A DNA stretch of 64,000 nt from Apoderus coryli (taxonomy: Eukaryota > Arthropoda > Insecta > Coleoptera > Attelabidae). The notes beneath the pieces are model-generated. The model did not search any database and was not told where the DNA came from. It was given only the letters and a program-made list of their open reading frames with translations. The DNA lies in contig OU452207.1 in assembly GCA_911728435.2 (NCBI GenBank), forward strand, positions 14,240,182 through 14,304,181, read 5' to 3'. Position numbers and translations under genes: made by a program. Positions 17,809-53,898 of this stretch are shown here, piece after piece (the first letter of the stretch is position 1; every line of letters begins with the position of its first letter).

Positions 17809-18751
17809 GAATGTACACAATGCGCATGCTAGATGCAAACCCCATAAGCAATTTGAGTATGAATGGTACCACACCAAGTTCAAATGCTATGTCCAGACAC
17901 GATATGGAATGCTTAGATACATCTAGTGCTGTTAGTTCTATGGGTTCCGAACGTGTACCATCACTGTCACATAGTGAATGGTGTGATGCGGGATCAGACT
18001 CTGGTCATACAACTAATGGCGAACATTATGTGAGAGATTACAATAAATTCAGACCTTACGACTACAGCTACTCCAGTCGTCAGTTAAATGCTAGTATTGG
18101 TAGTCCTGACGCTTCTAGATTACTGCCCGTAGCACAGAAAAAACATCAAATGTATGGAAAAAGATACTTCCAAGATCAAGGAGCTGCTAGTGCTGTACAC
18201 CAACCGCACAGACCAATTAAGTATGAATATCACAACCTGAAGGCACCGTGGATCAACAAATTACTGAAATGAAATACTCAAGCCAAATGGATTTTAATAG
18301 ACATCCTATTGTTAAAAATAATATCGATCATATTCAACACAACCATTCCTATCATTTACCAGCTGAAAACCACCTATTTCTAGAGATAAACAAAAACACG
18401 TAAATCATCTGAAGAGGAACATTTGACAAGAGATCAAAAAGAGCACGAGCTCTTAACGTATCAATAATGGTTGATGACATTATTAATTTACCTATGGATG
18501 AGTTCAATGAACGACTATCAAAATACGATTTAAGTGAAGCACAACTTAATCTAATCAGAGATATTCGCCGATGAGGAAAAACCAGCACAAAACTGTGAAA
18601 ACGAAAATTGGATCAAATATTAAGTCTTGCCGATGAAGTCAAAGAAATGAGAGATAGGAAACTAAGACTCATGAATGACCATGAATTTGTTGTAAATGGA
18701 TGTAAACGTTTGAAAGAAAAATGTCAACAACTCTATAGGCATGTATTTCAG
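17809..18751 (+). pseudogene. cnc: cap-n-collar (CNC bZIP transcription factor) exon fragment, copy 1
   Basis: An exon-like segment with a splice acceptor (TTCTAG, 17803-17808) and donor (GTAAAT at 18752). It encodes the C-terminal part of the CNC bZIP factor: an acidic/serine-rich stretch, the YVRDYNKFRPYDYSYSSRQ block, the CNC domain (PMDEFNERLSKYDLSEAQLN, about 18490-18550), a damaged basic region and a leucine zipper (LDQILSLADEVKEMRDRKLR...). Disablements: frame loss after about 18230, a stop at the start of the basic region (RR-stop-GK) and a second stop with a small deletion where the DNA-binding residues should be. CNC factors bind antioxidant-response or Hox-cofactor sites as dimers; this copy cannot. 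Confidence 0.9.
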
Positions 18752-19623
18752 GTAAATAAATGTTTAACAATTAATTAATTAATTAATAGAAGTATATTTC
18801 TAGTAATATTATTATGAATATATTGTTGTGAGAGATTACAATAAATTCAGACCTTACGACTACAGCTACTCCAGTCGTCAGTTAAATGCTAGTATTGGTA
18901 GTCCTGACGCTTCTAGATTACTGCCCGTAGCACAGAAAAAACATCAAATGTATGGAAAAAGATACTTCCAAGATCAAGGAGCTGCTAGTGCTGTACACCA
19001 ACCGCACAGACCAATTAAGTATGAATATCACAACCTGAAGGCACCGTGGATCAACAAATTACTGAAATGAAATACTCAAGCCAAATGGATTTTAATAGAC
19101 ATCCTATTGTTAAAAATAATATCGATCATATTCAACACAACCATTCCTATCATTTACCAGCTGAAAACCACCTATTTCTAGAGATAAACAAAAACACGTA
19201 AATCATCTGAAGAGGAACATTTGACAAGAGATCAAAAAGAGCACGAGCTCTTAACGTATCAATAATGGTTGATGACATTATTAATTTACCTATGGATGAG
19301 TTCAATGAACGACTATCAAAATACGATTTAAGTGAAGCACAACTTAATCTAATCAGAGATATTCGCCGATGAGGAAAAACCAGCACAAAACTGTGAAAAC
19401 GAAAATTGGATCAAATATTAAGTCTTGCCGATGAAGTCAAAGAAATGAGAGATAGGAAACTAAGACTCATGAATGACCATGAATTTGTTGTAAATGGATG
19501 TAAACGTTTGAAAGAAAAATGTCAACAACTCTATAGGCATGTATTTCAGGTAAATAAATGTTTAACAATTAATTAATTAATTAATAGAAGTATATTTCTA
19601 GTAATATTATTATGAATATATTG
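18028..19623 (+). repeat. 798-bp perfect tandem duplication within the cnc fragment
   Basis: The unit 18028-18825 is followed directly by a second copy, 18826-19623. The encoded peptides on both strands are identical and I found no mismatch by eye. The unit holds most of the cnc exon plus 74 bp of the following intron. Either very recent or an assembly duplication. Confidence 0.9.
18826..19549 (+). pseudogene. cnc: cap-n-collar exon fragment, copy 2 (tandem duplicate)
   Basis: Second copy of the CNC and leucine-zipper coding sequence, with the same stops and frameshifts as copy 1. It lacks the first about 220 bp of the exon and its splice acceptor, because the duplication began inside the exon. 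The donor GTAAAT at 19550 is kept. That the disablements are shared shows the duplication happened after copy 1 had already decayed. Confidence 0.9.
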
Positions 19624-20142
19624 TTTCCAATTTTAACATGATCACAGATCTGGTAGGTAGTTAGAAAACTCAATAATCAGAACCTCAAATTGTTAATATA
19701 CAAACAGCCCTGAACTAGTACCTGCTAAGGAAACTCTATATTATGTTAATGAATTAAAAAAAGAAACATGATAGAACAAAGTGATACACAAAACTAACAT
19801 TGTCTAAGAGATATACCAATTTCTTTTCAACCAATCCGTGTGCAAAAAAAGTCTTATTGGTTTAGATCGCAGAGTAAGAAATTTGTCAGACTCTTGAATC
19901 TAGGGAAGAATGCATATAAAAAGCAAAAGACACCCTCACCATGAACAACTATCCAATTCAATTCATAAATAAAATTGAACTAGAACTCACGACTCCCCAA
20001 AATAATACCCCAAAAAATAAATCAGTAAATAATATATTACTATTAGTTCTCAAGAAGTAGTCCATCTAATGGCGTTGTATATATGTTTCAACTATCGATT
20101 TGAGAAGTTAAATTCAGTTTATTAAATACATTTATTTTGCAG
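19624..20142. other. Intergenic AT-rich DNA
   Basis: Nothing recognised on either strand. It ends in a splice-acceptor-like TTTTGCAG before the first eya exon. Confidence 0.4.
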
Positions 20143-22130
20143 AGTGTTGAATACGGAACCTACGGTACATCATATTCCGATACACAAACCTCACAATATG
20201 CTTCAAGTTACTACGCTCTCAAACATATTACCGTATGTCAGCTCACCTAGTTCTAGTGGTAGTATAGGACCGTCAACGTATCAATTAGCATCTGCGTCTG
20301 TATCAGGTAAATATTTACTACGATATCCAAGGATCCAATAATTAATTGTTTTTCTATAAAAAGTCTAGGGACACATTACTCTGTGCCTTCGGTTGATGGC
20401 TATGTAAAAAGAAGATATAATGGTGACGTTCCTTTTATATCACATTTCATATAATTTCAAACAACTACAATTTATTGTACGTTCCATTTCCAAAGCTAAT
20501 TTCGTTTTAACATTCATAAATATTTCAAATGCATCAGTAATCTCAAATCAGATAAACTGATGTAAGGGGTAAAGGCAACGCACCAGACCTATTATGAATG
20601 AATATTGAAGTAATACATAACCTTTAATTTCTATGTGATTTATGTTGTTTACATTTAAATTATATTTTATTTTGTTTTGGTATTATATTATAATACATGC
20701 AACTAAAACCAATAATGTTAATTAATAGCTTTTAGCGTGCAGCACAATGTTATTGTTATTGTGTCTTACGGTTCTCTTACGTGGTTCCCAGTGTGTACAA
20801 TGATTCAGAGATTGGAGAACAGTTCCTGAACCTAAGTTACAACTCTTTTAAAAAAAAGGATCGATTGCTCTTTAATAGTGGATAATGGGGTTAATTTTCT
20901 AGTATATTTATGTCATTTTAATTTTATATGGGAGTGGGTCTCTTTAGTTTTAGTTGTAGTTTACTGTATTATTATATGCTTATTGTTATGAATATATTAT
21001 TATATGCTTAGTGTTATGAATAATGATGTATTGTAAAACATACATGCTCGGTTAACAAAACACCTTTGCTGCCCTTCGCCGAGTTAAAAATAAACACGTT
21101 TCTATTCTATTCTATATAGTGATACCAGTGACTCGGACTCTTCTGGTATTATTGTTTTCCGTTTGCTATCGTGCATTTGTTATTTTTATTGTCTTACAGA
21201 GAGTCTATCAAATGGTATTTCACTGGCAGACGGCCACACATCACCATTGAAAATAGTTGGTAGTAATAGTGCCAGAAGATCAAGGGATTCATCAGGCAGT
21301 TTAGGCTCAGAGACGCGAAGTTCGCGTGGCAGATGTCGAATAACGAATACGGTATCACCCACGACACCTGAATCAACGACTGATAGAGTTTTTATTTGGG
21401 ATTTGGATGATACTATAATTATATTTCACAGTTTGTTAACGGGTAGTTACGCCAGCAAATATCAAAAGGTTTCTACATTAAGATGTCTATTGTATTATTA
21501 TTAATAATAATCGTTTGTGTTTTTTTTAAAGGATACACAAAGTGTCGTTCAATTAGGATTCAAAATGGAAGAAATGGTTTTTAATTTAGCCGATACGCAT
21601 TCTTTCTTCCAACGATATTGAGGTGAGCTGGACAATTTTACTGGTACATTATAACCCTCTCACATAATGATTTTATTTTTAGGAATGCGACCAAGTACAT
21701 ATAGACGACGTTTCGTCAGATGATAACGGTCAGGATTTGAGTAACTACAATTTTACCACAGACGGATGTCATGCGTCTGCTACAGGTGGCGGTAATTTGT
21801 GTTTACCTACTGGGATGAGCGGTGGGGTTGATTGGATGCGAAAATTGGCCGTCCGGTATAGGAAAATTAAAGAAACATATAACAACTGTAGAAATAGGTA
21901 ACATTAGTAAACAGTACTTGAACGTTTAATACAATTTCCTGAATTATATTTGGTTTTAGTGTAGGAGGTCTGCTAGGCTCCAGTTGATGTTTGAAATTGT
22001 TTAATTCGCGTAGTAATTGTGTAAATGTTTTGGTGACCATAACGCAGTAGATACCAGCATTAGAAAAAGTATTATTGTTTGGACTAGGAAACGTGTGCCC
22101 TATTGATAATATATTCGGCAACAAAAATAG
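20143..22130 (+). pseudogene. eya: eyes absent (EYA transcriptional coactivator/phosphatase), five decayed exons
   Basis: Exons with AG/GT borders at 20143-20306, 21200-21468, 21532-21622, 21683-21897 and 21960-22130. Exon 1 encodes the Tyr/Ser-rich N-terminal part (GTYGTSYSDTQTSQYAS, then in another frame YVSSPSSSGSIGPSTYQLAS). Exon 2 enters the EYA domain with the phosphatase motif [17 protein letters not shown] (DxDxT kept). Exon 3 has MEEMVFNLADTH, exon 4 has [20 protein letters not shown] and exon 5 has NCVNVLVT and KVLLFGLGN. Breaks: a frameshift in exon 1, a 1-base shift at the end of exon 3, and in exon 5 a stop, a deletion of roughly 20-25 codons after VGGLLG and another stop. Introns are kept, so it is a DNA-level copy. 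The end of the EYA domain is absent. Confidence 0.93.
20600..21117 (+). repeat. Possible LINE 3' tail inside the eya intron
   Basis: The stretch ending AATAAACACG-TTTCTATTCTATTC looks like a non-LTR 3' end with a short repeat tail; a duplicated ATTATATGCTTAKTGTTATGAATA lies at about 20970-21030. No coding sequence supports it. Weak call. Confidence 0.3.
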
Positions 22131-22149
22131 GTACGTAATGTTTTTTTCT

Positions 22150-22806
22150 TGTATATATTTATATTCTTTGTATTGTTACTTTTGTGTAATTGCATTTATT
22201 ATTATTATCACTCTGGACACGCTCCGTAGCGAATCTTTCCTTACCTGCCCGTATATTGTAATATCATATTTCTTTTCGGGGGGAATTCTTGAAGAAAAAA
22301 AGTTACTTTCATGAAGCCCTATCTAAAATATAGTACTGTGAGAGGTGTCACCGTTTGTCTCAAAGTCTCAGTTTCACATGTTTAGACTTACTGTGAATTA
22401 AATTACAGCTTAAATGGTTATTTGCTTGTAACAAACTTTTTTAAAAATACTTAGTCACCAATAATGACAATTTTTTTTACTAGTAGAATTTCTTGGGAAT
22501 GAGGTTCATATGAAACTAGTTTTTTGAAATAATATTTATTTCATGTCATATCTTTCGTACAACGTTTCGACAACATTACGTTGTCTTCTTCAGGCAACAG
22601 AATCTTCTTTTTTTTTAATATAATTTCTTACAACATCTTTTCATTTTGACCAAGACATTAATGTCTAGTAAAAAATTAAATAATAAGGTTCAAGAAAACT
22701 TTCAAGAATAATGACAAAGTAAAATATGTATGAATAAATTAGTTAAGTGACGTTTTTAATTTTTTATTAAAAAAAGCTTATTATAAAATTTCAATATTCT
22801 TTGTTA
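22150..22806 (+). repeat. Segmental duplication, copy S2
   Basis: Nearly the same as 15903-16350 (LINE tail, GGACACG block, GAGAGGTGTCACCG block) but interrupted by a 236-bp insertion. It starts right after the last eya exon, in the middle of a LINE 3' UTR, so the duplication breakpoint is close to 22150. Confidence 0.8.
22471..22706 (-). mobile_element. 236-bp retroelement tail inserted in S2
   Basis: Flanked by the 11-bp duplication AATAATGACAA (22460-22470 and 22707-22717), which occurs once in copy S1. On the minus strand it contains CTGAAGAAGACAACGTAATG and TCGAAACGTT and ends in an A-rich tract, as in 3' ends of insect non-LTR or Penelope-like elements. A 5'-truncated insertion. Confidence 0.75.
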
Positions 22807-23471
22807 ACTAATATAAACCGCTAGCTAACTTATTCACTCTAATCTACAACCAAAATCAGTAAAAGTTTGTACGTATCTCCTCCAAAGAAAAATAATTGTA
22901 AAATATGTCATGTGTTTTTACATACAGTTAAATATTAATACCGAATAGTCGGTAGGCTACTTTTCGTGAGGCTTCTTTGAAGGGAAACATTTTTAAAATA
23001 GTTTCCAAATCGTCACATTTTTCATTAAAGTAAAGTCAGAAAAGAAAACAGATTTGTATGTTATTCTTATGGAATCTACTCGATTAAACAACTTACCAAC
23101 TTACAATGCTTTGCTGCCAGAATATTTTTCAAATTATCTCTATCCTACACCTCGTACTTATTATTCGCGCAATAGCTTAATTAAACTGAAACCTATTTAC
23201 ACACGACACATCTCCAGATGTTTAATTAAATATAATCTTAATTTCCCCAAGTTTATTTTATTTTACCTTTGCCTTAAAAATTGATAAATAGAAAAATCCA
23301 TTGAAAAATAACGCCCTGCAAAACGCTTTTGGTTTGATTAAAATGGAGTAAGTGGTTTTTGAAATATGCGAAAAAATATATTTTGATTCCTGCAACCTTC
23401 GTAGCAAATATGTTCTCTATATTAATTATAGGGACAAACAGATTAATCCTATTTAAATTTCTTTGCTATAG
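22807..23471. other. Intron-like DNA upstream of the ADE2 exon
   Basis: AT-rich, no SAICAR-synthetase coding visible. A 76-codon ORF at 23054-23284 has no recognisable domain and AT-rich composition. Ends in CTATAG, the acceptor for the ADE2 exon. Confidence 0.4.
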
Positions 23472-24139
23472 GTGAGTTAATGGTAGCCGATGTCATCGAT
23501 TCAGACAGCTGGCGATTATGGCCTGCCGACGATAAATGGTTAATGGTGGACAAACAAGTATACAGAAACTTGACTAATGTCACATCACAGGATCTCGATA
23601 CTGTTAAGCGTAACTTTGAATGGGTATCTGACCAATTAGACCACTTATTACCACCCAGAGATCATTTGGTCGTGATTGTAATGGGCAGTCCTACTGATAA
23701 AGATTACTGCAACAAAATCAGGAAATACTGTGAGGATTTGGGTTTGAAAGTGGAACTTCGCGTGTCCTCCGCGCACAAAACTACCGAATCCACATTGAAA
23801 TTGATCAGTTATTATGAATCTGTGAATTTGAAGATTGTTTTTATAGCAGTAACAGGTAGATCCAATGGTTTGGGCCTGGTGATTTCCGGTAATTCCGATT
23901 TTCCGGTTATAAATTGTCCACCGGTGTCCAAAGATGATGTGGATAGAGATATTTGGTCCAGTTTGAATGTTCCTTCAGGACTGGGTTGCGGAACAGTTAT
24001 TTATCCGGAAACTGCAGCGTTAAATGTTGCCCAAAGTGTTGCGTTGAACGACTACATTGTTTGGGCTAGGTGGAGAGTGCGAAGATTGAACAATTATGAT
24101 AAGTTGCCCAAGGCTGATGAAGAATTTAGGTATAAGTGA
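23472..24139 (+). CDS. ADE2: ADE2/Paics terminal exon: AIR carboxylase domain, uninterrupted
   Basis: The last exon of the bifunctional purine-synthesis enzyme (SAICAR synthetase plus AIR carboxylase), which carboxylates aminoimidazole ribotide. An acceptor (TATAG) precedes the exon and about 222 codons run to the stop at 24137-24139. Visible: VADVIDSDSWRLWP (end of the synthetase part), QVYRNLTNVT, VVIVMGSPTDKDYC (carboxylase P-loop-like motif), VSSAHKTTES, AVTGRSNGLG (usually AVAGRSNGLG), FPVINCPPV, SGLGCGTVIYPETAALN and LNDYIVWARWRVRRLNNY. No stop or frameshift seen. The upstream exons for the synthetase domain are not in the window, and cnc and eya pseudogenes surround it, so it is most likely an orphan exon, despite being the best-preserved host fragment here. 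Confidence 0.88.
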
Positions 24140-24281
24140 TTTATTAAATATTTTTGACTTATATGTAATTGTTGTAAAAATATATTATTTTATTTCTTTT
24201 ATTTGATGACTTTGTTTTCTGATAATAAAATATAATTGTATTTTTGTATCGATCAATTCTAAAAAATCTATTTTGTTCTAG

Positions 24282-25159
24282 GAATGTACACAATGCGCAT
24301 GCTAGATGCAAACCCCATAAGCAATTTGAGTATGAATGGTACCACACCAAGTTCAAATGCTATGTCCAGACACGATATGGAACACTTAGACACATCTAGT
24401 GACAGTGCTGTTAGTTCTATGGGTTCCGAACGTGTACCATCACTGTCAGATAGTGAGTGGTGTGATGCGGGATCAGACTCTGGTCATACAACTAATGACG
24501 AACATTATGTGAGAGATTACAATAAATTCAGACCTTACGACTACAGCTACTCCAGTCGCCAGTTAAATGCTAGTATTGGTAGTACTGACGCTTCTAGATT
24601 ACCGCCCGTAGCCCAGAAAAAACATCAAATGTATGGAAAAAGATACTTCCAAGATCAAGGAGCTGCTAGTGCTGTACACCAACCGCACAGACCAATTAAG
24701 TATGAATATCGATATGCTGCAACAGGTTCTTATAATTCACCTTCACAACCTGAAGGCGCCGTGGATCAAAAAATTACTGAAATGAAATACTCAAGCCAAA
24801 TGGATTTTAATAGACATTCTATTGTTAGAAATAATATCGATCATATTCAACACAACCATTCCTATCATTTACCAGCTGAAAACACGTAAATCATCTGAAG
24901 AGGAACATTTGACAAGAGATGAAAAAAGAGCACGAGCTCTTAACGTACCAATAACGGTTGATGATTTTATGAATCTACCTAAGGATGAGTTCAATGAACG
25001 ACTATCAAAATACGATTTAAGTGAAGCACAACTTAGTTTCATCAGAGATATTCGCTGAAGAGGAAAAAACAAAGTGGCAACACAAAACTGTCGAAAACGA
25101 AAATTGGATTGGATTGGAAAACGACGTGGAGGGCCCTCCGGAATCTGCAAACGTTATCA
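24282..25159 (+). pseudogene. cnc: cap-n-collar exon fragment, copy 3 (best-preserved N-terminal part)
   Basis: Same acceptor context as copy 1 (AAATCTATTTTGTTCTAG). 201 codons stay open from 24284, including a TGSYNSPSQPEGAV stretch that copies 1 and 2 have lost or scrambled. A frameshift after HLPAENT moves the CNC domain (LPKDEFNERLSKYDLSEAQL) into another frame (24822-25058). An Arg codon of the basic region is TGA (DIR-stop-RGKNKVATQNCRKRKLD). The sequence after KRKLD is then replaced by unrelated DNA, so the leucine zipper is absent; possible splice donors are near 25160. Copy 3 descends from the same source as copies 1 and 2 but decayed independently. Confidence 0.9.
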
Positions 25160-25731
25160 GTGTGAGTGCTTTTCACCATTTTTAATATTTTTTCCATCTT
25201 TCCTTATTTAATATATCTAATACAATAAAAATAATCAACCAAAAATACAGTCCACTTAACAGACGATCCTCGTCCCAACAGTTATTGTTGTCTTCTTGTT
25301 TATTTAGTCCGTGCCGTAGTGTGAATTTAGTGTTAGTACGTGATGAAGGATCTAGGTTTTTTTCTTTTATTATTCTAATTTCAATTGTTCCTATGCCAAG
25401 TAAATTAGTTATTTTTGCTTTGAAATATATGCCACGTGGTGTGTGTGTTTGTGCCAGTGGTGTACATACAATGAAACTAGAGCCAAAGAAGTAATATTCA
25501 AAAATAAAATAAAACGGCGTGATAGCTAAGAGTGTTCAAGTTTGGCTATGTGTCAACGTTAATTCTTCGTAATCGTAAGGTTGCGAGTTCAAAACTGGGT
25601 AATGGCACTTTTAGTAGATTTTTAAAAAAAATCTAACTATTCAGGAGATCGACACAACCGAAATTTTGAAAAATTTTTGTGCAGTACTTCATTTTATGAC
25701 CCCTGGATCCTAAAAATGACCTCAGTTCAAA

Positions 25732-25734: not shown

Positions 25735-25766
<32 letters not shown>

Positions 25767-27408: not shown

Positions 27409-27584
27409 AAAAGCCCCGATGACTGAGCCACTGTGTCGGATGTGGAAGTCAAATCCACGACCAATACATACTTAGGGTGGCATGCCGCCTGTCTTACATG
27501 TCAAGAGTGTCGACAGTTTCTCGATGAGTCTTGCACACGTTTCGTACGGGATCGTAAAACGTACTGAAAAATGGATTATGTGCG
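27409..27584 (+). pseudogene. tup: islet/tailup LIM domain 1 exon, decayed
   Basis: Acceptor TTACAG and donor GTACGT border an exon encoding [16 protein letters not shown], then in a second frame [19 protein letters not shown] and FVRD. This is the first LIM zinc-binding domain of the LIM-homeodomain factor islet (tailup), which specifies motor neurons and other cells. Breaks: a stop near the start (KPR-stop-LS), a deletion of about 17 bp that removes the residues between RV and WHAAC, a Cys-to-Arg change before FVRD and a TGT-to-TGA change that removes a zinc-binding Cys. The second LIM domain exon is 10.2 kb downstream; the homeobox exon is not in the window. Confidence 0.92.
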
Positions 27585-27652
27585 GTACGTATTTTTTTTT
27601 TAACTATTTCTGATGATGACTCGTATTATAAGCGAATGAACAAATGAAACAC

Positions 27653-27897
27653 AACCGTTTTTAGGCTTTCTTAGAAATTAAAAAAAAATATATATTCTAA
27701 TACTAATCAGAATTATATAACTAGTTAATTTTAATTGATTTTTAAAATAATTAATACGTTTTTTTTTTTGGTAATGGCGATTCTAATCCCACTGGTTACG
27801 CCTATGATAAATAGTGGTTCAAATATCGCTAGCCGTACTATTAATAGTGTTAAATAGTAAAATTATATTGCCCTTCGTATCTTCATCTCATTTCATA
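27653..27897 (+). repeat. Duplicated intron segment, copy X1
   Basis: About 245 bp (AACCGTTTTTAGGCTTTC ... CTTCATCTCATTTCATA) directly downstream of the islet LIM1 exon. The same segment recurs at 34248-34393 plus 36787-36893 (X2), where a LINE has split it. Confidence 0.9.
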
Positions 27898-28141
27898 TGA
27901 CAGATGTATATGCATAATATACGTTAGTGGATAATAATACCAACAAAAATTATAATTTATAAATTATTCTGTAGCAAAAAGATTTTAGGTAATCGTTTTA
28001 ATTATTTTTATAATATGTAACTATTTTATTCAAGGTTTATAGTCTGAAAAAATTAGGACTACATTCATAGTAAATTAATATGAAATAATAAATGTCTATT
28101 CTATTTTTAGCTCTCCATATCATATATGTAATATATGTATA

Positions 28142-30326
28142 CAGGGTGGTCCAACTTTTACCGGCATAAATTTCAGAATCGATAGATAATCGACAAATAA
28201 TGTGAGTTTTGTTAATAAACTATGTGCGAAAAATGCTTCGTTACAAAGTTACAGGGTGTTGAAATTTAAGAAAAAAAATGGAATTTTATTAATATCTTTA
28301 TAACCAATTGAGATATTTAAATGAAATTTGGCATGTGTAGAGGGGTAATTTTCATGTAATAATATTATTTTTATTTCCACCAGTGGCGTGCGTACGGCTA
28401 CCGTTTGCGATATTTTGAATGACAAAACAGATACGACACTGGTTTTTCTCAAGATAAGAACTATATCTGCAATCCTTATTCAATTTAAAAGAAAAAAGTA
28501 CTCTTGGCTTTTTTTCGTATGACTCAACATTTTCGAGTAAAAAGATAAAAATCGTCTAAATCAAATTTATTGAAAACCAACATAAACATAACATCTCATT
28601 ACACGTTTTAACAGATTTTACAGTTTTTTTACAGAAACTGTCCAAAATGACCTCCGCCATTGTCAATACATAATTGACATCTTCTGCTGATGCTCTTAAT
28701 TGCTGCTTCTTGAATTTTTAAGACTAATTCTTCGCGGTTTCTGGCCGGCACCCTATACACTTTTTCTTTTTGGTAGCCCTCAATAAAGAAATCAAGTGGA
28801 GTCAGGTCAGGCGACCTTGGGTCCAAGATATAGGTCCCTCATGATTCTTTTCGATTTCTCCAGAGAAACGGCCAATCCTTTGATTTCCGTAATGCTCTGT
28901 TATCCAGTTTCCCACATTCCGCCCGAAATGTGCTGGTGCTCCATCCATTTGAAACCAACCATTCGTACGTAAATGAAGTGGCACGTCATCCAATAAATCA
29001 TTTAAATTATTCTGTAAAAAGTAATTGTGCTGAGACCCTAGCTGGTAAAAAGAATGGTCCGAGGAGATTATTGGATATTACTCCTAGCCACACGTTCACA
29101 CTGAATTGGTGAACTTTCTGGTGAAAGTTGTGGTAATTCGTTATACCAGTACCTACTTGCAAATGAAGCTTCAGCAGTCCAGCAAAACTTTTGCAGGAAA
29201 TCTTCATCTACTTGAACTTTATTCAATAACCAATTGCAATGCAGTTACGCGTTTTAACATAGTCCTCAGGCAACAAATCTTGCACAGGCCTAAAATGGTA
29301 AGCCTTTCTACCATCTTTATGAAGTGACCTAAGAATGGTTGACCTTGATATGTTAAGCATGACAGCAGCTCTTCGTGAACTTAGGTTTGGATTTCGATCA
29401 AACGTTCTTAAAATACGCCTTTCATCGGCCAAACTGTTTCTTCTAGGGCGCTGTCTATTGTTATTTATGTTAAAAGTAGTATTTAAACCTCGTTCTCGAG
29501 ATACCCGATGAACTTGAGAGAAAACTTATCTCGTTGGATGACGTCTACTGCGTGCATACTCCCTTGCGGCTGCTACTGCATTTTCTTCGCAAAAACCGCA
29601 AATTAAATGAATGTCTGCGTATTCTTGGTTAGTAAATAGCCGCGGCATTATTATTAACACTAAAAAGAACACTTAAATGCAACACAATTTTGTGGTGACA
29701 AAATGATTGACATTTCTGTTTTGTAACCAAGTGTTTTGTTTTAATCAAAGCTAATTGATAATTATGCGCCTTTTACTAATTCAGTATTGACAATGACGTT
29801 AGTCATTTTGAACAGTTTCTGCAAAAAAAAAACTGTAAAATATGTGTAAAACGTGTAATGATATGTTATTTTTATGTTGGTTTTCAATACATTTGATTTA
29901 GACGATTTGTATTTTTTTACTCGAAAATGTTGCGTCAAACGAAAAAAGCCAAGATTATTTTTTTCTTTTAAATTGAATAAGGATTGCAGATATAATTTTT
30001 ATTTTGAGAAAAACCAGTGGCGTATCTGTTTTTTCATTCAAAATATCGCTATCGGTAGCCGTACGCACGCCACTGGCGGAAATAAAAATAATCTTATTAG
30101 GTGGCAAAATTAAGCTAGATTAGCTCTCTACACATGCCAAATTTCATTTAAATATCTCGATTGGTTATAAAGATATTAATAAACTTCCATTTTTTTTCTT
30201 AAATTTCAACACCCTGTAACTTTGTACCGAAGCATTTTTCGCACATAGTTTTTGAACCAAACTCACATTATTTGTCGATTATCTATCGATTCTGAAATTT
30301 ATGCAGGTAAAAGTTGGACCACCCTG
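28142..30326 (-). mobile_element. Tc1/mariner-superfamily element with inverted repeats of about 500 bp
   Basis: Ends CAGGGTGGTCC...GGACCACCCTG, flanked by the TA target. The left terminal repeat (28142-28642) and right one (about 29811-30326) are imperfect inverted copies over their whole length. They enclose a degenerate transposase gene on the minus strand. The empty site is visible in copy 1 of the host repeat at 10826. Unusually long terminal repeats for a mariner-type element. Confidence 0.88.
28629..29647 (-). pseudogene. Degenerate Tc1/mariner (IS630-type) transposase
   Basis: The minus-strand start MPRLFTNQEYADIHLICG is near 29647. It is followed by an in-frame stop after RSRRHPTR, a helix-turn-helix region (NPNLSSRRAAVMLNISRSTI, 29223-29432), a central part broken by frameshifts, the second catalytic Asp context FQMDGAPAHFGRN (about 28945) and the third catalytic region PRSPDLTPLDFFIEGY (about 28800). 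It reads as the insect group of mariner-like transposases with the SPDLTPLDFF motif. Several stops and shifts; not functional. Confidence 0.85.
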
Positions 30327-30429
30327 TATATGGAGACTATTAGTTTCATGAAAAAAATTTTTTTTTTTAATTTCACCGGAAATACTTGTTTTTGGTCATT
30401 TTATACATAAATAAGTAGTTTTAAAAAAA

Positions 30430-30464
<35 letters not shown>

Positions 30465-32167: not shown

Positions 32168-32187
32168 GCCTCGAGGGCAACAGCTAG
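32168..32187 (+). other. Candidate Helitron 3' terminus (hairpin plus CTAG/T)
   Basis: TGCC-TCGAG-GGCA hairpin, 4 nt, then CTAG followed by T. This matches the layout of Helitron ends, but the hairpin is short. Confidence 0.45.
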
Positions 32188-32456
32188 TTTTTTTTTGTAT
32201 GAATATAATAATAACGACAATAAATAGATAACGAGCACATATTTTAGTCTAAATATCTAAAACTCGTGCCAATGTAGCACCCCAGTAATAACCGTCTATG
32301 TATGTGATGCTTCGATGCCGTTCAGCGGAAACAGTTGTTTCGTGAGCAAGCAGGTGATCGCCTGCTGTGAGCGCCCTGTTCTCTCTCTCATAGTTTAGTA
32401 AACGTCGTTCCGTTTCGTTTTCTCGTTTACTACCTCTCCGTCTCTTCTCTGTTCAG
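32188..32456 (+). other. Spacer/5'-UTR-like DNA before prospero
   Basis: Non-coding; GC content rises from about 32280. A pyrimidine-rich tract ends TGTTCAG, an acceptor-like site directly before the prospero coding exon. Possibly the end of the prospero 5' intron or leader carried along. Confidence 0.4.
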
Positions 32457-34250: not shown

Positions 34251-34393
34251 CGTTTTTAGGCTTTCTTAGAAATTAAAAAAAATTATATTCTAATACTAAT
34301 CAGAATTATATAACTAGTTAATTTTAATTGATTTTTTAAAATAATTAATACGTTTTTTTTTTGGTAATGGCGATTCTAATCCCACTCGTTACG

Positions 34394-37748: not shown

Positions 37749-37811
37749 CATAAATTAACAAAACTTACTTCCTACTATATTAAAAATTAAATTTGAAGGT
37801 CCTTTTCGCAG

Positions 37812-45404: not shown

Positions 45405-46179
45405 TCTTGAGCTATTCACAAACATTTGATCACATCCATCCATCTGACGGCTTTCATGTCACTTTAGGTTATTAAGGTTATTATCACTTTTTCACTAAAA
45501 TTACTTTAAATACACAATGACAACTTCTAAATTTACTCCAACTATATCGAATAACCTTTTTATAACACTACAATATACAACATGTTGATAGAAATTGATC
45601 TTAAACATGAAAATAATGCCGAAAACTTTTAGACTATGAATGTAAACAAAGAAAATAATAAACTATTTGACACAAGCAATTTGTCTGACGCGTTAGAAAA
45701 AACATTCTAACCAAAACCAAATTATGACGTGAAACTAGAAGTGTCAACAAAACTAAAATAAGTGACACCAACGTTAGAAATATTAGCAAATTATGACGTG
45801 AAACTACAGGCGCAACTATATTGGAATTTGTCGATTTTTCTTTGAAAACCATTTTCATGACTATATTCTTAGAAAAACATATGGGAAAAGCAATTTCGTA
45901 TATTTTTATGCGCAATCGTGTCAAAGAATGACGTACAAATTCATAAATTCTATTGAAAAAGTATGAATCTTTAAAAATATGATTCACTTCACACATACTA
46001 CATTCCTTTTATAAATATCACTATTCCAAATGTCATATAAATTGTGACAGCTACCCCACACAAAAATATTTCGATATCAATAAATAATTGATAGATTTTT
46101 TTTTTGCAACCCTCAATGACTTTTTTCATAGATAAAACTACCACAAAACGACTGGGAAATCCCAAAGGGATTTCTTGTT
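45405..46179 (+). mobile_element. Hairpin-ended (HL) non-autonomous element, copy 1, 3' part
   Basis: Contains ATCCATCCATCTGACGGC, ACATGTTGATAGAAATTGATC and CATGAAAATAATGCCG, all shared with copy 2 near 49390-49570. The end is CCCTCAATGACTTTTTTCAT, then TAAAACTACCAC and the hairpin GAAATCCC-AAA-GGGATTTC (46156-46174), then TTGTT. No ORF. The 5' part is different from the other copies or missing. Confidence 0.7.
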
Positions 46180-46443
46180 GTTTTATTTAATTAAAAGCTG
46201 TTCAATTAATTGTGCATGTAATTCTAAGCTGTTCTTTTTATTTAAGCCTTAACCTTTAAAGAAAATTGATTAATTTATTAAATAAAAAAATATACAAAAA
46301 CAAAACTGAATAAAGAGAACAGTTTTACAAAATATTTCCAATTTCTTATTAGAGCCAAATAAAAATTGTAGAAAATGCATGCAAATATTCGAATGAGGTC
46401 AATATGAACGAAACATCCTAACCGGAATTTGATAACTTTTTAG
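46180..46443. other. Junction DNA between HL copy 1 and the Dscam exons
   Basis: AT-rich; ends in the TTTTTTAG acceptor of the first Dscam exon. Probably Dscam intron sequence. Confidence 0.35.
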
Positions 46444-48932
46444 TACCACCAAGATGGATATTAGAACCAACTGATAAAGCATTTGCACAAGGTTCTGATG
46501 CTGCAGTTGAATGTAAAGCCGATGGGTTTCCTAAGTCTGTAGTTACATGGAAGAGCGCAACAGGTAAACATTTTGAAAGATTAAAATTATTAGTTTTAAT
46601 GAATTTATGTATTTTCTCTTTTAGGGGTCTCACCTGGCGATTACAAAGATTTTAAACCAAACAATCCAGATATTCGTGTTGAGGATGGTACATTAATGAT
46701 TAATAATATTCAAAAGACTAATAAAGGTTACTATCTTTGCGAAGCTGTAAATGGAATTGGTTCTGGTTTATCTGCTGTAGTATTAATCAGTATACAAGGT
46801 ACTTATTGATAAATTAATATTTCATGGATATATTTGTTAATCTTGGTTTATAAAGCTCCACCACAGTTTGAAGTCAAATTCCGCAATCAGACCTCACATA
46901 GAGGTGATCCAGCTGTATTACAATGTGAAGCAAAAGGTGAAAAACCTATTGGTATTTTATGGAATATCAACAACAAACGGTTAGAACAGAACCAAAAGGC
47001 GAGAATCGTTATACGATCAGAGAAGAAATTTTACCAAATGGAGTTTTATCAGATTTGTATCAAACGAACAGAACGTTCTGATTCAGCAATTTTCACTTGT
47101 GTCGCAACTAATGCATTTGGAAGTGATGATACCAACATCAATATGATTGTACAAGAAGAGCCCGCAATTCCATATGGTTTGACGGTTTTGAATAAGTCTG
47201 GGAAGACTGTACAGTTGTCTTGGGTAGCACCATATGATGGAAATTCACCCATTAAGAAGTAAGAAGCATCTTGTATTTAATTAGTTTAGGTTGTATTTTT
47301 CTGTTCCAACAACTAACAATTTGTTTTTAATTTGAAGTTATGTTATCGAGTACAAACCAAGTAAAGGGAGTTGGGAAAAGAACTCTGAACGTGTCCTGGT
47401 ACCAGGTGATCAAACTGAAGCCGGTATATTTACGCTGCGTCCAGCCACTACATACCATATCCGAATTGTAGCCAAGAACGAGATCGGAACATCAGATCCT
47501 TCTGATACCGTTACAATAATTACAGCCGAAGAAGTACCTGGTGGTCCTCCGACAAATATCAGAGTTGAAGCTGAAGATCAAGATTCATTAGTTGTGTATT
47601 GGAAACCACCATTAAAAGATCATTGGAACGGTGATATCCAGGGTTACTATGTTGGTTATAAACTCGCTAATACTGATAAGCCATATCTTTTTGAAACTGT
47701 TGAATTTTCAAGAGAAGAGGAAGGCAAAGAACACCATTTGAAGATCTCAAATTTGAAGACATACACTCAATACTCAGTGGTAGTGCAAGCTTTTAATAAA
47801 ATCGGTGCTGGACCTACAAGTGAAGAAGTCAAAGCTAATACTGCTGAAGGTGTACCAGAACAACCTCCAGACAAGGCTACCTGCACCACTCTTACTGCAC
47901 AAACAATTCGCGTATCTTGGGTATCACCACCATTGACCTCAACTAACGGCGTTATTAAAGGTTATAAAGTTATCTACGGCCCTTCAGACACTTGGTTCGG
48001 TTAGTAATTATTCCATTATAAGTAGGTTGTTTATTTAAAGTTGATTTTATTGCAGATGAGAATACCAAATATACTAAAATCACAGCCTCCAGTGAAACTA
48101 TTTTACATGGATTGAAGAAATACACGAATTACAGTATGGAGGTTCTTGCATACACTTCTGGTGGAGATGGTGTTAGAACGACACCAATTGCTTGCCAAAC
48201 TGAGCAAAATGGTACGTAATTCGTATAGATTTGTAAAGTTCCTACTCATAGTAAAATGTATAATTTTTGCAGTACCCGAAGCTCCTACTGCAGTAAAAGC
48301 CTTAGTAATGTCAGGTGACGCAATCTTAGCTAGCTGGAAACCGCCTGCTGAACCAAATGGAATATTACATGGTATACTATAGAGTAGCTGGTGATACTCA
48401 AGAAAAACCTAAATCCCAAAAGATCGTACCCAATTTGAGAAATCAGAATTTAAGCTTCCAAGCCAAGAATTTAGATAGTAACTTGAAATACGAATTCTGG
48501 TTAACAGCTGCAACAACAATTGGTGAGGGTCAACCGTCGAAGAAAGTTACTGTATCTCCAAGTACAAGCGGTGAGTGTACAACAATTTTTGCCAAAGAAA
48601 ACTATGAAATCGAATGTACCTTTGCTTGATTTACAGTCCCTGCCAAAACTGCGTCTTTCGATGACACTTTCACCACAACTTTCAAGGAGGATGTCACGTT
48701 ACCATGTTTGGCTGTGGGTGTACCTCCTCCAGCGATCACATGGACCATTAAAGGTGTAAAATTCACACTGAACTCCATCGATAGAATCCGACAACAACCT
48801 GATGGTTCCCATTTCATACGAGACGTCACTAGAACCGATGCTGGCGAGTATTTATGTCGAGTAGAGAACGATTTCGGCCAAGACTCTGTTACACATCAGT
48901 TGATTGTGAATGCTCCACCATATGCACCTCAG
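46444..48932 (+). pseudogene. Dscam1: Dscam1-like fragment: seven exons, Ig8-Ig9, FN1-FN4, Ig10
   Basis: Exons with AG/GT borders: 46444-46563, 46625-46798, 46856-47258, 47338-47999, 48056-48211, 48273-48570 and 48637-48932. The first two encode Ig8 (VPPRWILEPTDKAFAQGSDA, YYLCEAVNGIGSGLSAV); the third Ig9 (RGDPAVLQCEAKGEKPIGIL, SDSAIFTCVATNAFGSDD) and the start of FN1; then FN1-FN4 (GYYVGYKLANT, QYSVVVQAFNKIGAG, ASSETILHGLKKYTNY, VPEAPTAVKALVM); the last Ig10 (LPCLAVGVPPPAITW). Dscam is a neuronal and immune homophilic receptor. Frame breaks: a compensating pair in the Ig9 exon and a shift near 48362. The N-terminal Ig1-7, with the alternative-exon clusters, and everything after Ig10 are absent. 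Introns are short and intact. Confidence 0.93.
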
Positions 48933-48987
48933 GTAACTGTCTTCATAGTAATTAATAATAGACGAAATACACCAAAGGCAACTTGTT

Positions 48988-51072
48988 AATATATAATAAC
49001 GAGTGATCTTCGCGTCTTTGTCTAAAAACTGGATAAAATGGCCCGATTTGCGTGACAGTTGGCTTAATTGCACGCCGGAGCTGATTCAGTGCATTACAAT
49101 TATGTATTTTATTAAATTATTTACCTCTACAAAACCGAAATTAGAGAGTGAGTGAGAGGTGAGTAACTTTTTCTACGAGGAAAATAAAGAAAACAACAGT
49201 ACAAAACTGAAAAATGCTACTACTAAATCAATAAATTTACCTTTTGCAACATCCACACACACAATAAAAGCATTTTGATTTATACTAGGAACCGTTCTAA
49301 ACACGGGAGTGCACTTTTACGGTATGGTACGGCCCTTTATTAGATTTTTAATTGTAAACTAAAAATGTTGGAAAATCTTCGAGACGTTGTACATCCATCC
49401 ATCTGACAGCTATCACTTTAGGTTAACAACACTTTTTCAGTAAAATTACTTCAAATACACAATGGCACCTTCTAAATTTACTACAACTATTTTTAATAAC
49501 CATTTTATAACAATACAATTTACAACATGTTGATAGGAATTGATCTTAAACATGAAAATAATGCCGAAAACTGTTAGGCTATTAATACTATTTGACACAA
49601 GCAATATGTCTGTCGGGTTAGAAAACACATCTTACCAAAACCAAATTATGACGTGAACTAGAAGTGTCAACTAAACTAAAATAAGTGACACCAACGTTAG
49701 AAAAAAATACTGCCAAATTATGACAAACCAACGACTCATGATAGAGAGATATGGTAGTCCTAAAATTAACGTCCGCCGCTATTAACGTTAATTTAACCCC
49801 AACGATTTTCAAACAGAGGGATGCGGTAGTTCTAAAATAACGTACCTATGATGATAATCATATTATATGCAGCCATTTTTAGGATAGCAGATTTAAAATA
49901 CCTATCTAATATATTTATAGTAGGTATTTGTATAAAATTTTATGAGGTTATTGAATTTGACAAGTGGATTTATGATTTAAATTAAGTATTTATCAGATTA
50001 TAACAACATTAATTAATAAGCAGCATGTACAGGGTGATACAAAAAAACATTAATGTGGGCTAATTTAAGAAATTTTAAATGTATAGAGATTTATATACGG
50101 GGTGAATCAAAAATGTATTTATTTATTTTGTTAAGGACAAAAAAGTAATATTTTGAATAATTTTTTGATTTCTTTAGATTTCCAATCAAGATTTTTTTGA
50201 AAGTTAAACTATAACCTCCGAGAGGCTATCTACGGGGTAACTCAAAAATATTTATTAATGTTATTTATTATTTAAGACTTTTAGACACGGCAGCACCTTA
50301 TCAGCTATATGTGACTTTTTATTTTCTTTAAAAGATAAATTTTTAGGGTAGGCTTTAAATATATATACGGGGTGAGTCAAAAATGTATTTCATTATTTTG
50401 GACAAAAAAGTAATATTTTGAATAATTTTTTGATTTCTTTAGATTTCAATTCAAGATTTCTTTGAAAGTTAAACTATAACCTCCTAGAGGTTATCTACGG
50501 GGTAACTCAAAAAAGTTTATTAATGTTATTTATTATTTAAGACTTTTAGACACCAAAGAAACTTATCAGCCATAGGTGACTTTTTATTTTCTTTAAAAGA
50601 TAAATTTTTAGGATAGGCTTTAAATTTATATACGGGGTGGGTCAAAAATGTATTTCATTATTTTGGACATAAAAGTAATATTTTGAATAATTTTTTTGTT
50701 TCTTTGGATTTCAATTCAAGATTTCTTTGAAAGTTAAATTATAAGCTCCTTGAGGTTATCTACGGGGCAACTCAAAAATGTTTCTATTTATTTTCAATTT
50801 TTTTTTTTCTTGAAAATTTTTTTTTGGAAACTTTTTTTTTGAACTTTTTTTTTTAATTTTTTTTTTTTGATTTTTTTTTGAAATTTTTTTTTGAATTTTT
50901 TTTTTAATTTTTTCTTTTATTTGTTTTTTGAATTTTTTTTTTCAACTTTTTTTTTTTATTTTTTTTTTGTTGAAATATTTTTTCTCGATTTTTTTTTTAT
51001 AACCCTCAATGACTTTTTTCATAGATAAAACTACCACAAACCGACTGGGAAATCCCGCAGGGATTTCTTGTA
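48988..51072 (+). mobile_element. Hairpin-ended (HL) non-autonomous element, copy 2
   Basis: Starts AATATATAATAACGAGTGAT, shared with copy 4 (63241). The body shares GGGAGTGCACTTTTACGGTAT with copies 3 and 4 and ATCCATCCATCTGACAGC with copy 1. Then come three to four units with TATACGGGGTGARTCAAAAATG (50090-50790), a T-run region (50790-51000) and the end hairpin GAAATCCC-GCA-GGGATTTC (51049-51067). No ORF. It begins 56 bp after the last Dscam exon and ends 283 bp before the ATPase exon. Confidence 0.8.
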
Positions 51073-51354
51073 ATTAAAATAAATATCTTTAATTTCATAC
51101 AATTTATCTTAGTTCCTTTAAATTTGCCGGTATCTATATACCGGCAAATTGGGTTGTATGAAATTTCATGAAGAAAAGAAAAAAGAAAAATGTGCTGGGA
51201 AATTGTAAATCGACTACTTTTAGGGATTGTTTTGAACACCTCTTATCCTAAAAATGTGTATATTATATTTTAATTTCGGCTACTATTAATTTAATATCAC
51301 ATTAATCACTCATATTCGTCAAACAATTTCTTTATGTATGTATTTATTTTGCAG

Positions 51355-51707
51355 GTATATTTTCATATTATCAAGAAAGTAAAAGCTCTAAAATTATGGA
51401 ATCTTTCAAAAATATGATGCCTCAATTCGCCACCGTTATCAGAGAATGCGAAAAGTTGACTCTTCGTGCCGAAGAAATTGTACTAGGTGATGTTGTAGAA
51501 GTTAAATTCGGGGACAGAATACCTGCCGATATTAGAATAATTGAATCTAGAGGATTTATAGTTGACAATTCATCACTGACTGGAGAATCCGAACCGCAAA
51601 GCAGATGTCCTGAATTCACACATGAAAACCCATTGGAAACGAAAAACTTGGCATTTTCTCCACCAATGCGGTTGAAGGCACAGCCAAAGGTGTTGTAATA
51701 AGTTGTG
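51355..51707 (+). pseudogene. Atpalpha: Na+/K+-ATPase alpha subunit exon with a frameshift
   Basis: Acceptor TTTTGCAG, donor GTATGT. Encodes [60 protein letters not shown] and [15 protein letters not shown], the actuator domain with the P-type ATPase TGES motif. After ETKNLAF one T is missing; the remainder (coding for a [17 protein letters not shown] end) is in another frame with stops following. One conserved-looking Gly in the IREGEK context is Cys here. The pump exports Na+ and imports K+; only one exon of it is present. Confidence 0.92.
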
Positions 51708-52371
51708 GTATGTACTCAGTTTCAGTAATTCACAAGTTCAAGATTATATCGACAATTAAGTGTAAATGTTTGATTGAGAATTTCCAAGTCATATATTATC
51801 TTGATTTATTAGTTTTAGTTAAACTAGCTATTTATCTATCAATAACACATCAGAATTTACAGTTGAATTGATTTATACATTTTTACATCTGACTTATATT
51901 TATTTGGATTATCAGCAAAAACACGTCGATTTTTTGTATAGGAAGTGAGATATAAAATTAAAGCACTGTATATATACCTGGAATACCATCGGGAAGGGTT
52001 TCAATCGATTATGGAGAAACTACACTGTGGAACAATCTGATGTAGTATAGTTCTGTTTTCAAGAATCTAGTACTTCCGGTTATACCGGAAATGGGCGTCA
52101 ACTTCCTTATTTTAAATACGACTTCATATAAATTATATATATTTTTGGGATTCTGCTTGTAATTCTAAAGATAGCTCATGTATAATTATGTTATACCTAT
52201 GTCCAGCCGATTTGGAAATATTTGAAATTTTATGCCAAAAATGCAGATTAAAGAATAATTACAATTTTTTATTCTACGGAAGCTTTAATAATTTAATTTG
52301 GTGGGATATCTTAGTAGTTATAGGTCTACTTTAGGACCTATTGAATCATTCATAAAAAATTAATATTTTAG
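51708..52371. other. Intron-like DNA between the ATPase and membrane-protein exons
   Basis: No coding sequence recognised. Confidence 0.35.
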
Positions 52372-52786
52372 GTTGTTACAAGTTTAAATTATTACAGTAA
52401 CATTAATATGAGTTATGCGAAAAAACCTTCTACTGGTACGCCCAGTGTATACTCGCACATTACAACCCGAAGCACAGGAAACTTACGTAGTACTGTAAGT
52501 TTGAAATCGTTGAAAACGCCTTGGTACAAGAAGCCAATTATTGAAGATGCTATTGTAATGGATGTGCAAAACGCTTCTATGATGGCCGCTGTGTTTTCAT
52601 TGGTAATAAAGTACATACTTATGTATTTGGTTTATGACTCTTAGCTTGTCTTTTAGGTTCTCTCCGTTTTTACCATAATCACAGGAATTTTTGATTTGTA
52701 TTGTTACTATATGGCTGCTCCAGGTTCGACACATTATGGTTATTATGTGATTTCCTACCAGTTTGTATATGTGGGTTCGAGACATG
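52372..52786 (+). CDS. Two exons of a small insect multi-pass membrane protein (partial)
   Basis: Exon 1 (52372-52602) has its start at 52408 (MSYAKKPSTGTPSVYS), a Ser/Thr-rich cytoplasmic-type N-terminus, KTPWYKKPIIEDAIVMDVQN and the start of a hydrophobic segment. Exon 2 (52657-52786) continues the segment (VLSVFTIITGIFDLYCYYMA) and has APGSTHYGYYVISYQFVYVG before the donor GTATGT. The joined frame is open and both splice borders are kept. It looks like an insect four-transmembrane protein of the pasiflora/fire-exit kind; that family name is a guess. Later exons are absent, so the locus is partial like its neighbours. Confidence 0.6.
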
Positions 52787-53175
52787 GTATGTATTATATT
52801 TAATTAAAAGTAATTTAGACCTCTTGCAACAATGCAACGTATTCAGATTAATTTCTTGGTTAACTGTTAATAAAATTTATACAAGAAAAATGTATTAGAG
52901 AAAGTGAACAAAAATCTAATGTTTGAATTAATAATTCCAAATCTAAATTCCCAGAAAAAGATTGAACAAAATCTGGAGCAATAATATGACAACGCCGCTA
53001 TACTCCGTCACCAGTCACCAGACCTGAATAGTTCTGCAAAAATCCGCACAACATATCATAAACATCCATAATCCATACTGATCACAGTTATAAGTAATAA
53101 ACACGAGCAAATATTCATAAAAGAAGAATTAAACTAAAATAGATTTAATTTGTGTTAAAACAAATAATACATAAC
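52787..53175. other. Spacer before the Prat exons
   Basis: No coding sequence recognised; possibly remnant intron and 5' UTR. Confidence 0.35.
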
Positions 53176-53898
53176 ATGGATCAAACACTTGTTGATTGGA
53201 AAGATAGGAGAATTAAACAAGGTGAACTCAACAGTGGACTAACACGAATGTGGAGTTTTTGGAGCAATAAGAAATGAAAATTGAGTCAACGACGCAGAAA
53301 TTGGTCAACTAATTGCAATTGGATTAGAGGCACTGCAACATAGGTATAAAACATACTTTTAAAAATAACTGATATTTTTCCTGAGTATCTAAACCCACGT
53401 GATTGATTTTTAATTATTTTATCGTAAAATTCTTGTATACCTAAGTAAGAAATATACCTAGGTATACTTCACCGAAAAAAAAAGAAATACTTTGACTATT
53501 AGAAGGAAAAACTAAATACTAAAAGTACTAAATTTCACATAAATAAAATCATATTGAAAATACTCATCCATAATTAAGGACTAACATTTGTACTCGTTAA
53601 TTTAAAATTGACTGTATTACTTATTTTTTTAAGAGGCCAAGAGTCAACAGGTAAAGTAACAAGCGAGGGGAGCAATGAGTTTCACATTCACAAAGGTATG
53701 GGACTGGTTAAGAATGTATTCAACAAGGAATGTTTGGCCAAGTTGAAAGGAATAATGGGTATAGAACATACTAGATATTCTACAAGTGCCAAATCGGAAC
53801 AAATCAATTGCCAACCGTTTGTGGTACATTCCGTGCATGGTTCTCCTGCTGTGGCCCATCATGGAGAGCTGGTTAATGCTGCAGCTTTAAGGAAACAA
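53176..53898 (+). pseudogene. Prat: Prat/PPAT (amidophosphoribosyltransferase) N-terminal glutaminase, two broken exons
   Basis: Exon 1 (53176-53343) starts at an ATG and leads into ECGVFGAI-like sequence containing the catalytic Cys. It has a frameshift just before CGVFGAI, a TGA after RNEN, then EIGQLIAIGLEALQH. Exon 2 (53634-53898) carries GQESTGKVTSEG, HKGMGLVKNVFN, IMGIEHTRYSTS and SPAVAHHGELVNAAALRKQ. The enzyme makes phosphoribosylamine from PRPP and glutamine, the first step of purine synthesis. The usual AHNGEL motif is AHHGEL here; that Asn helps form the oxyanion hole in this family. The phosphoribosyltransferase half is not in the window. Confidence 0.9.

What the first reader, a model, noticed from the sequence alone, without database searches (positions are those of the whole stretch)
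17809..53898. Fragments of nine unrelated host genes, all on the same strand, most with introns kept
Seen directly: exon pieces of cnc (three times), eya, ADE2/Paics, islet/tailup, prospero, Dscam1, Na+/K+-ATPase alpha, a small membrane protein and Prat lie in 36 kb. Every one reads on the plus strand and most are bordered by AG/GT splice signals. With nine independent sources, one shared orientation has a chance of about 1 in 256. Introns exclude processed pseudogenes. No piece is a whole gene. Known biology: Helitrons and related rolling-circle elements capture gene pieces at DNA level and keep splice sites. Inference: an oriented capture process, or a chromosome that collects duplications (B, Y/W or heterochromatic arm). 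It could also yield a chimeric spliced transcript.
Basis: partly seen in the sequence, partly recalled or inferred. Interest (0 to 1): 0.88.

Follow-up and report, generated by a model that had tools for sequence, protein, structure and literature searches.

The report
Sense-strand graveyard of gene fragments
In an insect (probably beetle) genome, pieces of at least nine unrelated genes, most with introns kept, lie end to end and partly inside one another beside a satellite array, all in the same reading direction; the joins resemble known break-repair or duplication processes, but the one-way orientation is unusual and not yet explained.

Summary
Eight of nine pieces were traced to one parental locus each in the same assembly (eight loci, five other contigs, 90-97% identical, introns included); ADE2's search did not complete. 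"Cnc three times" is one large cnc duplicate, an exact 799-bp tandem copy and a second copy. Blocks abut or nest: ADE2 lies in cnc, prospero in islet. A both-strand scan of 184 kb plus two genome searches added three upstream pieces: castor-like, Maf inside it, and an unnamed coiled-coil piece. All 12 recognised pieces are sense on plus; transposon ORFs in the window are mixed (4 plus, 5 minus). Six of nine window sources have broken frames and copies differ from parents by about 1.5-6%, which argues against misassembly. The Maf piece lacks its parent's 57-bp GT-AG intron, so at least one piece came from RNA. Dscam and ATPalpha start at the 3' hairpin end of a tandemly arrayed, HINE-like repeat that forms the satellite beside the window. 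Best reading: a heterochromatin-like sink where distant gene pieces were inserted or duplicated at breaks. The uniform strand suggests sense-RNA templating or purging of antisense copies; chance is not excluded, and neither idea was testable here.

The parts
15536..20084 (+). cnc copy 1 (intronic LINE end, exon 17809-18753, introns), with exact 799-bp tandem duplication 18029-18827/18827-19625; part of a larger cnc duplicate with pieces 17-35 kb left of the window start
   Evidence: parent G000:C25 about 5.007-5.021 Mb (-)
20091..22152 (+). eya copy, about six exons (by eye) with introns, frameshifts and a 72-bp exonic deletion; about 340-bp dispersed repeat inserted
   Evidence: parent C5:41570363-41572061 (+)
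22149..25109 (+). cnc copy 2 (22149-about 22812 and 24223-25109), interrupted by the ADE2 insert
22813..24222 (+). ADE2/Paics last coding exon (open, about 23473-24139) with flanking sequence, inserted in cnc copy 2; cnc resumes at about the next base (edges read from the junctions)
   Evidence: parent not found (searches unanswered)
25110..25160 (+). short exon-like piece with a splice donor, source unknown
   Evidence: search of 25100-27420 did not complete
27412..27892 (+). islet LIM1 exon and intron (17-bp exonic deletion)
   Evidence: parent C17 about 14.3157 Mb (+)
27910..34252 (+). prospero copy (27910-28108 and 32188-34252), inserted in the islet intron and itself interrupted by transposon and tandem-repeat sequence 28109-32187; two in-frame stops
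   Evidence: parent C5:32357260-32359304 (+), 97%
34250..38477 (+). islet intron resumed (about 34250-34393, 36787-37518) and LIM2 exon with flanks 37746-38477; LINE 34394-36786 inserted
   Evidence: parent C17:14317161-14317903 (+), 91%
46094..46178 (+). H1: 85-base 3' hairpin end of the HINE-like repeat H; how far H extends to the left was not established
46178..48987 (+). Dscam copy, about seven exons and introns, small exonic deletion near 48370 (read by eye); lies between the H1 3' end and the H2 5' end
   Evidence: parent C19:5029740-5032245 (-), 97%
48982..51071 (+). HINE-like repeat H2 (5' unit, tandem repeats, T-rich tract, 3' hairpin end)
51071..52343 (+). Na+/K+-ATPase alpha copy (one exon, 1-bp frameshift, flanking introns) starting at the H2 3' end
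   Evidence: parent C5:29452464-29453737 (+)
52336..52829 (+). small membrane protein copy, two open exons and intron; joined to ATPalpha with CCTATTG microhomology
   Evidence: parent C1:12539736-12540233 (-), 97%
53137..53932 (+). Prat copy, one open exon and flanking introns, five amino-acid changes
   Evidence: parent C1:11971436-11972229 (-), 93%
60481..64000 (+). start of the head-to-tail H array (131-bp monomers), continuing beyond the window to about +99 kb, with further H or satellite copies to about +123 kb

Best explanation
This is a degenerate mosaic of host-gene pieces at a repeat-rich, probably pericentromeric or otherwise heterochromatic site. Shown: pieces with a known parent are duplicates of distant loci, with introns in all of them but Maf; they abut or nest; six of nine window sources have broken frames; all 12 recognised pieces are sense on one strand. 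Inferred: a large cnc duplication was an early layer; other pieces were inserted at double-strand breaks by templated insertion or microhomology-mediated joining, from DNA or unspliced RNA and in one case (Maf) from spliced RNA; nesting implies more than one step. Tandem rolling-circle-like repeats (H) carried or anchored two pieces. The one-way orientation most likely reflects either sense RNA as template or loss of antisense insertions that would trigger RNA interference against essential genes. No coding function of the mosaic was shown.
For: Parents for 8 of 9 window pieces and 3 of 3 flank pieces at loci off C16. Collinearity through introns; no gap of 15 bp or more in Dscam. Nesting: ADE2 in cnc2, prospero in islet, Maf in castor-like, itself between two parts of a C12-derived block. 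Junctions with 5-7 shared bases, CCTATTG, TTGTT, CTTGTT (103) and AACCG (judged against the left islet intron copy, 19, 82), or fillers: 6 bases cnc/eya, 12 bases castor/Maf. Satellite array next door. Spliced Maf. Sense in 12 of 12 recognised pieces versus transposon ORFs 4+/5-, Fisher p 0.006.
Against: The cnc block covers at least 12.6 kb of parent span with an intronic LINE, better seen as a segmental duplication than a templated insertion. Prospero is flanked on both sides by about 150 bp of the same islet intron (8, 82), unlike a simple blunt insertion. Step order is not well dated: castor-like 2.0-2.2% versus Maf 1.5% and islet 4.3% versus prospero 2.0% total substitutions, but Maf and prospero are mostly exon, and on noncoding sites prospero (4.0%) and islet (4.7%) hardly differ. 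Six blocks have statistically equal noncoding divergence (p 0.46), nine do not (p 0.044, 135), so a burst is possible. Parents cluster on C5 (4 of 11) and C1 (3 of 11). No transcription or small-RNA data. Heterochromatic status rests on repeats only.
Confidence: 0.55

Rival explanations
1. Rolling-circle capture: Helentron/HINE-like elements (H) read through their 3' ends and transduced downstream gene sequence, building the array.
For: H has a 3' hairpin, central tandem repeats and head-to-tail arrays. Dscam and ATPalpha start at H 3' ends; three C16 ATPalpha copies share that junction but match the parent up to different right ends. Maize Helitrons gain fragments stepwise (PMC3288121 passages) and Helentrons can capture gene fragments (PMC4067079 passages).
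Against: Between -6451 and H1 no H tail was found on either strand at E 0.01, apart from one weak 51-base match at 45827, so seven of nine window sources have no adjacent H 3' end. No exact subterminal inverted repeat of 8 bp or more. No Rep/helicase was seen, but only 20 selected ORFs of the window were scanned. The ATPalpha and Dscam parents show no H at the breakpoints.
Confidence: 0.2
2. Ordinary pericentromeric segmental-duplication mosaic, as in primates, with orientation by chance.
For: Large cnc duplication, distant donors, satellite neighbour, microhomology junctions. Interchromosomal duplications with a gene fragment are known on an olive fly Y (PMC3049792 abstract).
Against: 12 of 12 recognised pieces on one strand, two-sided 0.0005 (128), while transposon ORFs are mixed. 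A spliced piece (Maf) needs RNA.
Confidence: 0.35
3. A one-strand transcribed locus (for example a unistrand piRNA cluster) from which antisense gene pieces are purged because they would silence essential genes.
For: In this window the bias holds for host-gene pieces and not for transposon ORFs; most donors are essential genes in insects and beetles have strong RNA interference (both recalled).
Against: No expression data. Transposon ORFs are not biased as in flamenco-like clusters (strands; flamenco recalled, PMC10643416 seen only in the listing).
Confidence: 0.2
4. Assembly error or haplotype chimera.
For: C16 holds a 5-kb N gap about 38 kb right of the window; the exact 799-bp tandem repeat (8) could be artificial.
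Against: Pieces differ from their parents by about 1.5-6% substitutions plus indels, and H-ATPalpha recurs at three C16 places; misjoined reads would be near identical to the parents.
Confidence: 0.05

Closest known systems
Class 2 templated sequence insertions (TSIPs), PMC5110952 (passages)
   Same: Distant, often transcribed sequence inserted with microhomology or added bases, no target duplication, no poly(A); RNA source supported by experiments described there
   Different: Here many insertions lie nested at one locus, span several exons, and share one strand
Pericentromeric segmental-duplication mosaics of primates (search listing only; otherwise recalled)
   Same: Distant donors, introns kept, abutting duplicons, satellite neighbour
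   Different: Small pieces, single sense orientation, a spliced piece
Helentron/HINE rolling-circle elements and their gene captures (PMC4067079, PMC7492417, passages)
   Same: H has a 3' palindrome, central satellite repeats and tandem arrays; two gene pieces lie at its 3' ends
   Different: No exact subTIR found; most pieces not bounded by H
[quoted passage not shown]
   Same: Insect heterochromatic chromosome collecting a duplicated gene fragment
   Different: One gene fragment named in the abstract; here 12 donor genes in one orientation

Membership tests
HINE (non-autonomous Helentron), for repeat H | Palindrome/hairpin near the 3' end | tested here: met
HINE (non-autonomous Helentron), for repeat H | Central tandem repeats (reported for some copies) | tested here: met
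HINE (non-autonomous Helentron), for repeat H | 12-15 bp subterminal inverted repeats | tested here: not met
   no exact match of 8-14 bp between the first 165 bases of one H unit and the last 91 of another; degenerate ones not excluded
HINE (non-autonomous Helentron), for repeat H | T-rich insertion site, no target duplication | tested here: inconclusive
   most copies seen are in tandem; ATPalpha parent site AAAT/AATT
Helitron/Helentron gene capture, for the whole cluster | Captured pieces lie between element ends | tested here: not met
   only Dscam is bounded by H on both sides and ATPalpha on one
Helitron/Helentron gene capture, for the whole cluster | Autonomous Rep/helicase partner | not tested
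   no genome-wide search made
Class 2 templated sequence insertion | Distant donor left intact | tested here: met
   donor loci present for 11 of 12 pieces; whether the donor genes are whole was not checked
Class 2 templated sequence insertion | Microhomology or added bases, no TSD, no poly(A) | tested here: inconclusive
   met at the junctions read; prospero has a repeated islet intron on both sides; not every edge was resolved
Class 2 templated sequence insertion | Derived from RNA | tested here: inconclusive
   Maf spliced; the others compared keep their introns
Processed pseudogenes | Introns removed, poly(A), TSD | tested here: not met
   introns kept; Maf spliced but without poly(A) or TSD seen
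B, Y or W chromosome | Sex- or individual-limited presence | not testable with these tools
   no read data

The most novel reading that the evidence does not exclude
A sense-only archive of transcripts: at a one-strand transcribed, break-prone satellite border, breaks were patched again and again with copies of host transcripts, mostly unspliced and once spliced, and antisense insertions were removed by selection because antisense RNA would silence essential genes in an insect with strong RNA interference. The locus would then record which genes are transcribed in the germ line and which strand is tolerated.
Probability: 0.15. Interest if true: 0.85.

Novelty: new variant of a known kind. Interest (0 to 1): 0.55.

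Why it matters
It would show that DNA inserted at breaks can be screened by strand, linking break repair, heterochromatin growth and RNA silencing. It also offers a nested series of gene-piece insertions in an insect, including a spliced one, in which RNA-templated repair in the germ line becomes testable.

Tried and rejected
Rejected: processed pseudogenes (introns kept); parts of intact local genes (parents on other contigs, six of nine sources frame-broken); misassembly (divergence from parents); three independent cnc captures (one large copy plus two duplications); one gigantic Helitron (no H ends around most blocks). A single event for everything is disfavoured by nesting but not excluded; noncoding divergence is equal for six blocks (p 0.46) and unequal for nine (p 0.044). 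A 13-bp apparent target duplication at ADE2, noted, was dropped after reading the junction. Pfam on ten flank and minus-strand ORFs gave only bZIP_Maf, so 'castor-like' and 'coiled-coil' are labels by eye. Paper searches in which I found nothing closer: no paper; listings. The codon scan of six other 10-kb loci (four from C16, two beside the cnc parent) listed 14 or fewer short segments per call on both strands: some transposon-like, some not identified, one parental cnc; it is a small control, not a genome-wide rate. Confidence in the best explanation was lowered from 0.60 to 0.55 on checking, because the step order is less well dated than I had first written.
Full report
What is there. The window is G000:C16:14240182-14304181 of a 428-Mb, 129-contig assembly. 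The best hit of the ADE2 piece that carries a beetle name is Anoplophora glabripennis (74%; other named hits there are flies, a bee and one record without organism), and the only named hit of the prospero piece is Callosobruchus chinensis, so a beetle is likely but was not tested further.

Parents. Own-genome searches placed the sources of eight of nine pieces off C16: cnc C25 minus, eya C5 plus, prospero C5 plus, islet C17 plus, ATPalpha C5 plus, a small membrane protein C1 minus and Prat C1 minus, Dscam C19 minus. The search scores only the best candidates. ADE2 did not complete. Alignments run through introns; in Dscam no gap of 15 bp or more occurs over 2.8 kb (117). Noncoding substitutions per aligned site: cnc 24/478, eya 50/778, ATPalpha 54/885, memb 7/170, Prat 23/530, islet 20/427, Dscam 28/690, castor-like 10/422, prospero 34/855 (counts; compared). 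Left out before the comparison: the islet LIM1 side (53/290, repeat-laden), the cnc LINE part and 19 cnc2 bases. Exon bounds were set by eye, for castor-like only approximately.

Decay. Frame-breaking indels against the parent occur in cnc1, cnc2, eya, islet and ATPalpha; Dscam has a small exonic deletion read by eye, and the prospero frame has two stops (the parent's frame was not checked). Memb, Prat and ADE2 pieces are open; Prat differs from its parent by five amino-acid and four silent codon changes.

Architecture. Cnc is one large sense copy: parent span at least 12.6 kb, with pieces at -35071..-33375, -17922..-17498 and 15536-20084 in window coordinates. A 15.4-kb element with inverted-repeat ends (17 bases seen) and a direct repeat of about 9 bp splits its upstream part. 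An exact 799-bp tandem repeat and a second cnc copy follow. Eya lies between the two cnc copies, joined by a 6-base filler on the left and a short overlap on the right. ADE2 sits inside cnc copy 2, which resumes at about the next base. Prospero sits inside the islet intron, with about 150 bp of that intron present on both sides. ATPalpha joins memb through a 7-base microhomology, and a dispersed 300-bp repeat lies between memb and Prat. In the left flank a castor-like block (name recalled, no Pfam hit) from C1 lies between two parts of a C12-derived block and is itself split by a Maf block from C11 (Maf domain); a block with an unnamed coiled-coil-like reading frame, from C5, lies at about -41118 to -40110.

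RNA evidence. The Maf copy lacks exactly a 57-bp stretch that begins GT, ends AG and interrupts the reading frame of its parent. I saw no poly(A) tail or target duplication. None of the other gaps of 15 bp or more in the compared blocks looks like a removed intron (117); the cnc blocks and islet LIM1 side were compared only.

Repeat H. A unit with a defined start, 131-bp monomers, a T-rich tract and a hairpin end (...GGGAAATCCC...GGGATTTC) is repeated head to tail from 60481 to about +99 kb, with interruptions, and on the minus strand at C16:13.0 Mb (the printout of 36 was cut). Dscam lies at an H/H junction; parent and junction share TTGTT and CTTGTT (103). ATPalpha starts at an H end here and at two other C16 places (14.38 and 17.22 Mb), all plus, with different right ends of the match to the parent. 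This fits 3' transduction or segmental duplication; the subTIR test for HINE membership failed on exact matches.

Strand. A codon-usage scan of both strands over 184 kb, trained on pieces from the window itself, gave 63 segments. The host-gene ones that I recognised all read plus; with the window pieces that makes twelve donor genes, 12 of 12 sense. Transposon ORFs in the window number four plus (15476, 34345, 38778, 55976) and five minus (549, 2485, 29223, 40407, 41742) by my count; Pfam supports four of them, the rest are by eye or by similarity. Fisher p is 0.006 for 12 and 0.029 for the nine window genes; one search had been given 5/4, p 0.021; without the LINE end inside the cnc block p is 0.0036. 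Some short minus-strand segments stayed unidentified. The test is post hoc, and memb/Prat may be one event.

Interpretation. The data show a nested, one-strand mosaic of donor-gene duplicates near a satellite array. The way of joining fits templated insertion at breaks (PMC5110952, passages) or segmental duplication. Why only sense is open: RNA templates, purging of antisense copies, or chance.

Noticed in passing
L005 5178-5766 (window -54822..-54234): Maf bZIP piece inserted in a castor-like piece; lacks the parent's 57-bp GT-AG intron
   Followed up: yes
L005 3701-3777 and 6443-7002: Low-copy C12-derived block, 89-94% identical, on both sides of the castor-like block; identity unknown, possibly non-genic
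   Followed up: partly
L006 8882-9890: Unnamed coiled-coil-like piece, parent C5:34652979-34653988 (+), 97%, bounded on both sides by dispersed repeats
   Followed up: partly
window -33375..-17922 (L007-L009): 15.4-kb element with terminal inverted repeats and about 9-bp direct repeats inside the cnc copy, perhaps Polinton-like (label recalled)
   Followed up: no
window 54845-60265: LTR element with 99.86% identical 707-bp repeats, so probably recent; its long open frame matches aspartyl protease and baculovirus F-like envelope domains, with no reverse transcriptase domain reported in that frame
   Followed up: no
window 1825-8245: LTR-like element on the minus strand with 99.66% identical 294-bp repeats and one 1663-codon open frame
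   Followed up: no
window 30583-31996 and 10833-12449: Sequence with about 142-bp tandem repeats, two related blocks (80%), repeat type unknown
   Followed up: no
C16:14380749-14385775 and C16:17222372-17222726: Two more copies of the H-ATPalpha unit on the same contig
   Followed up: partly
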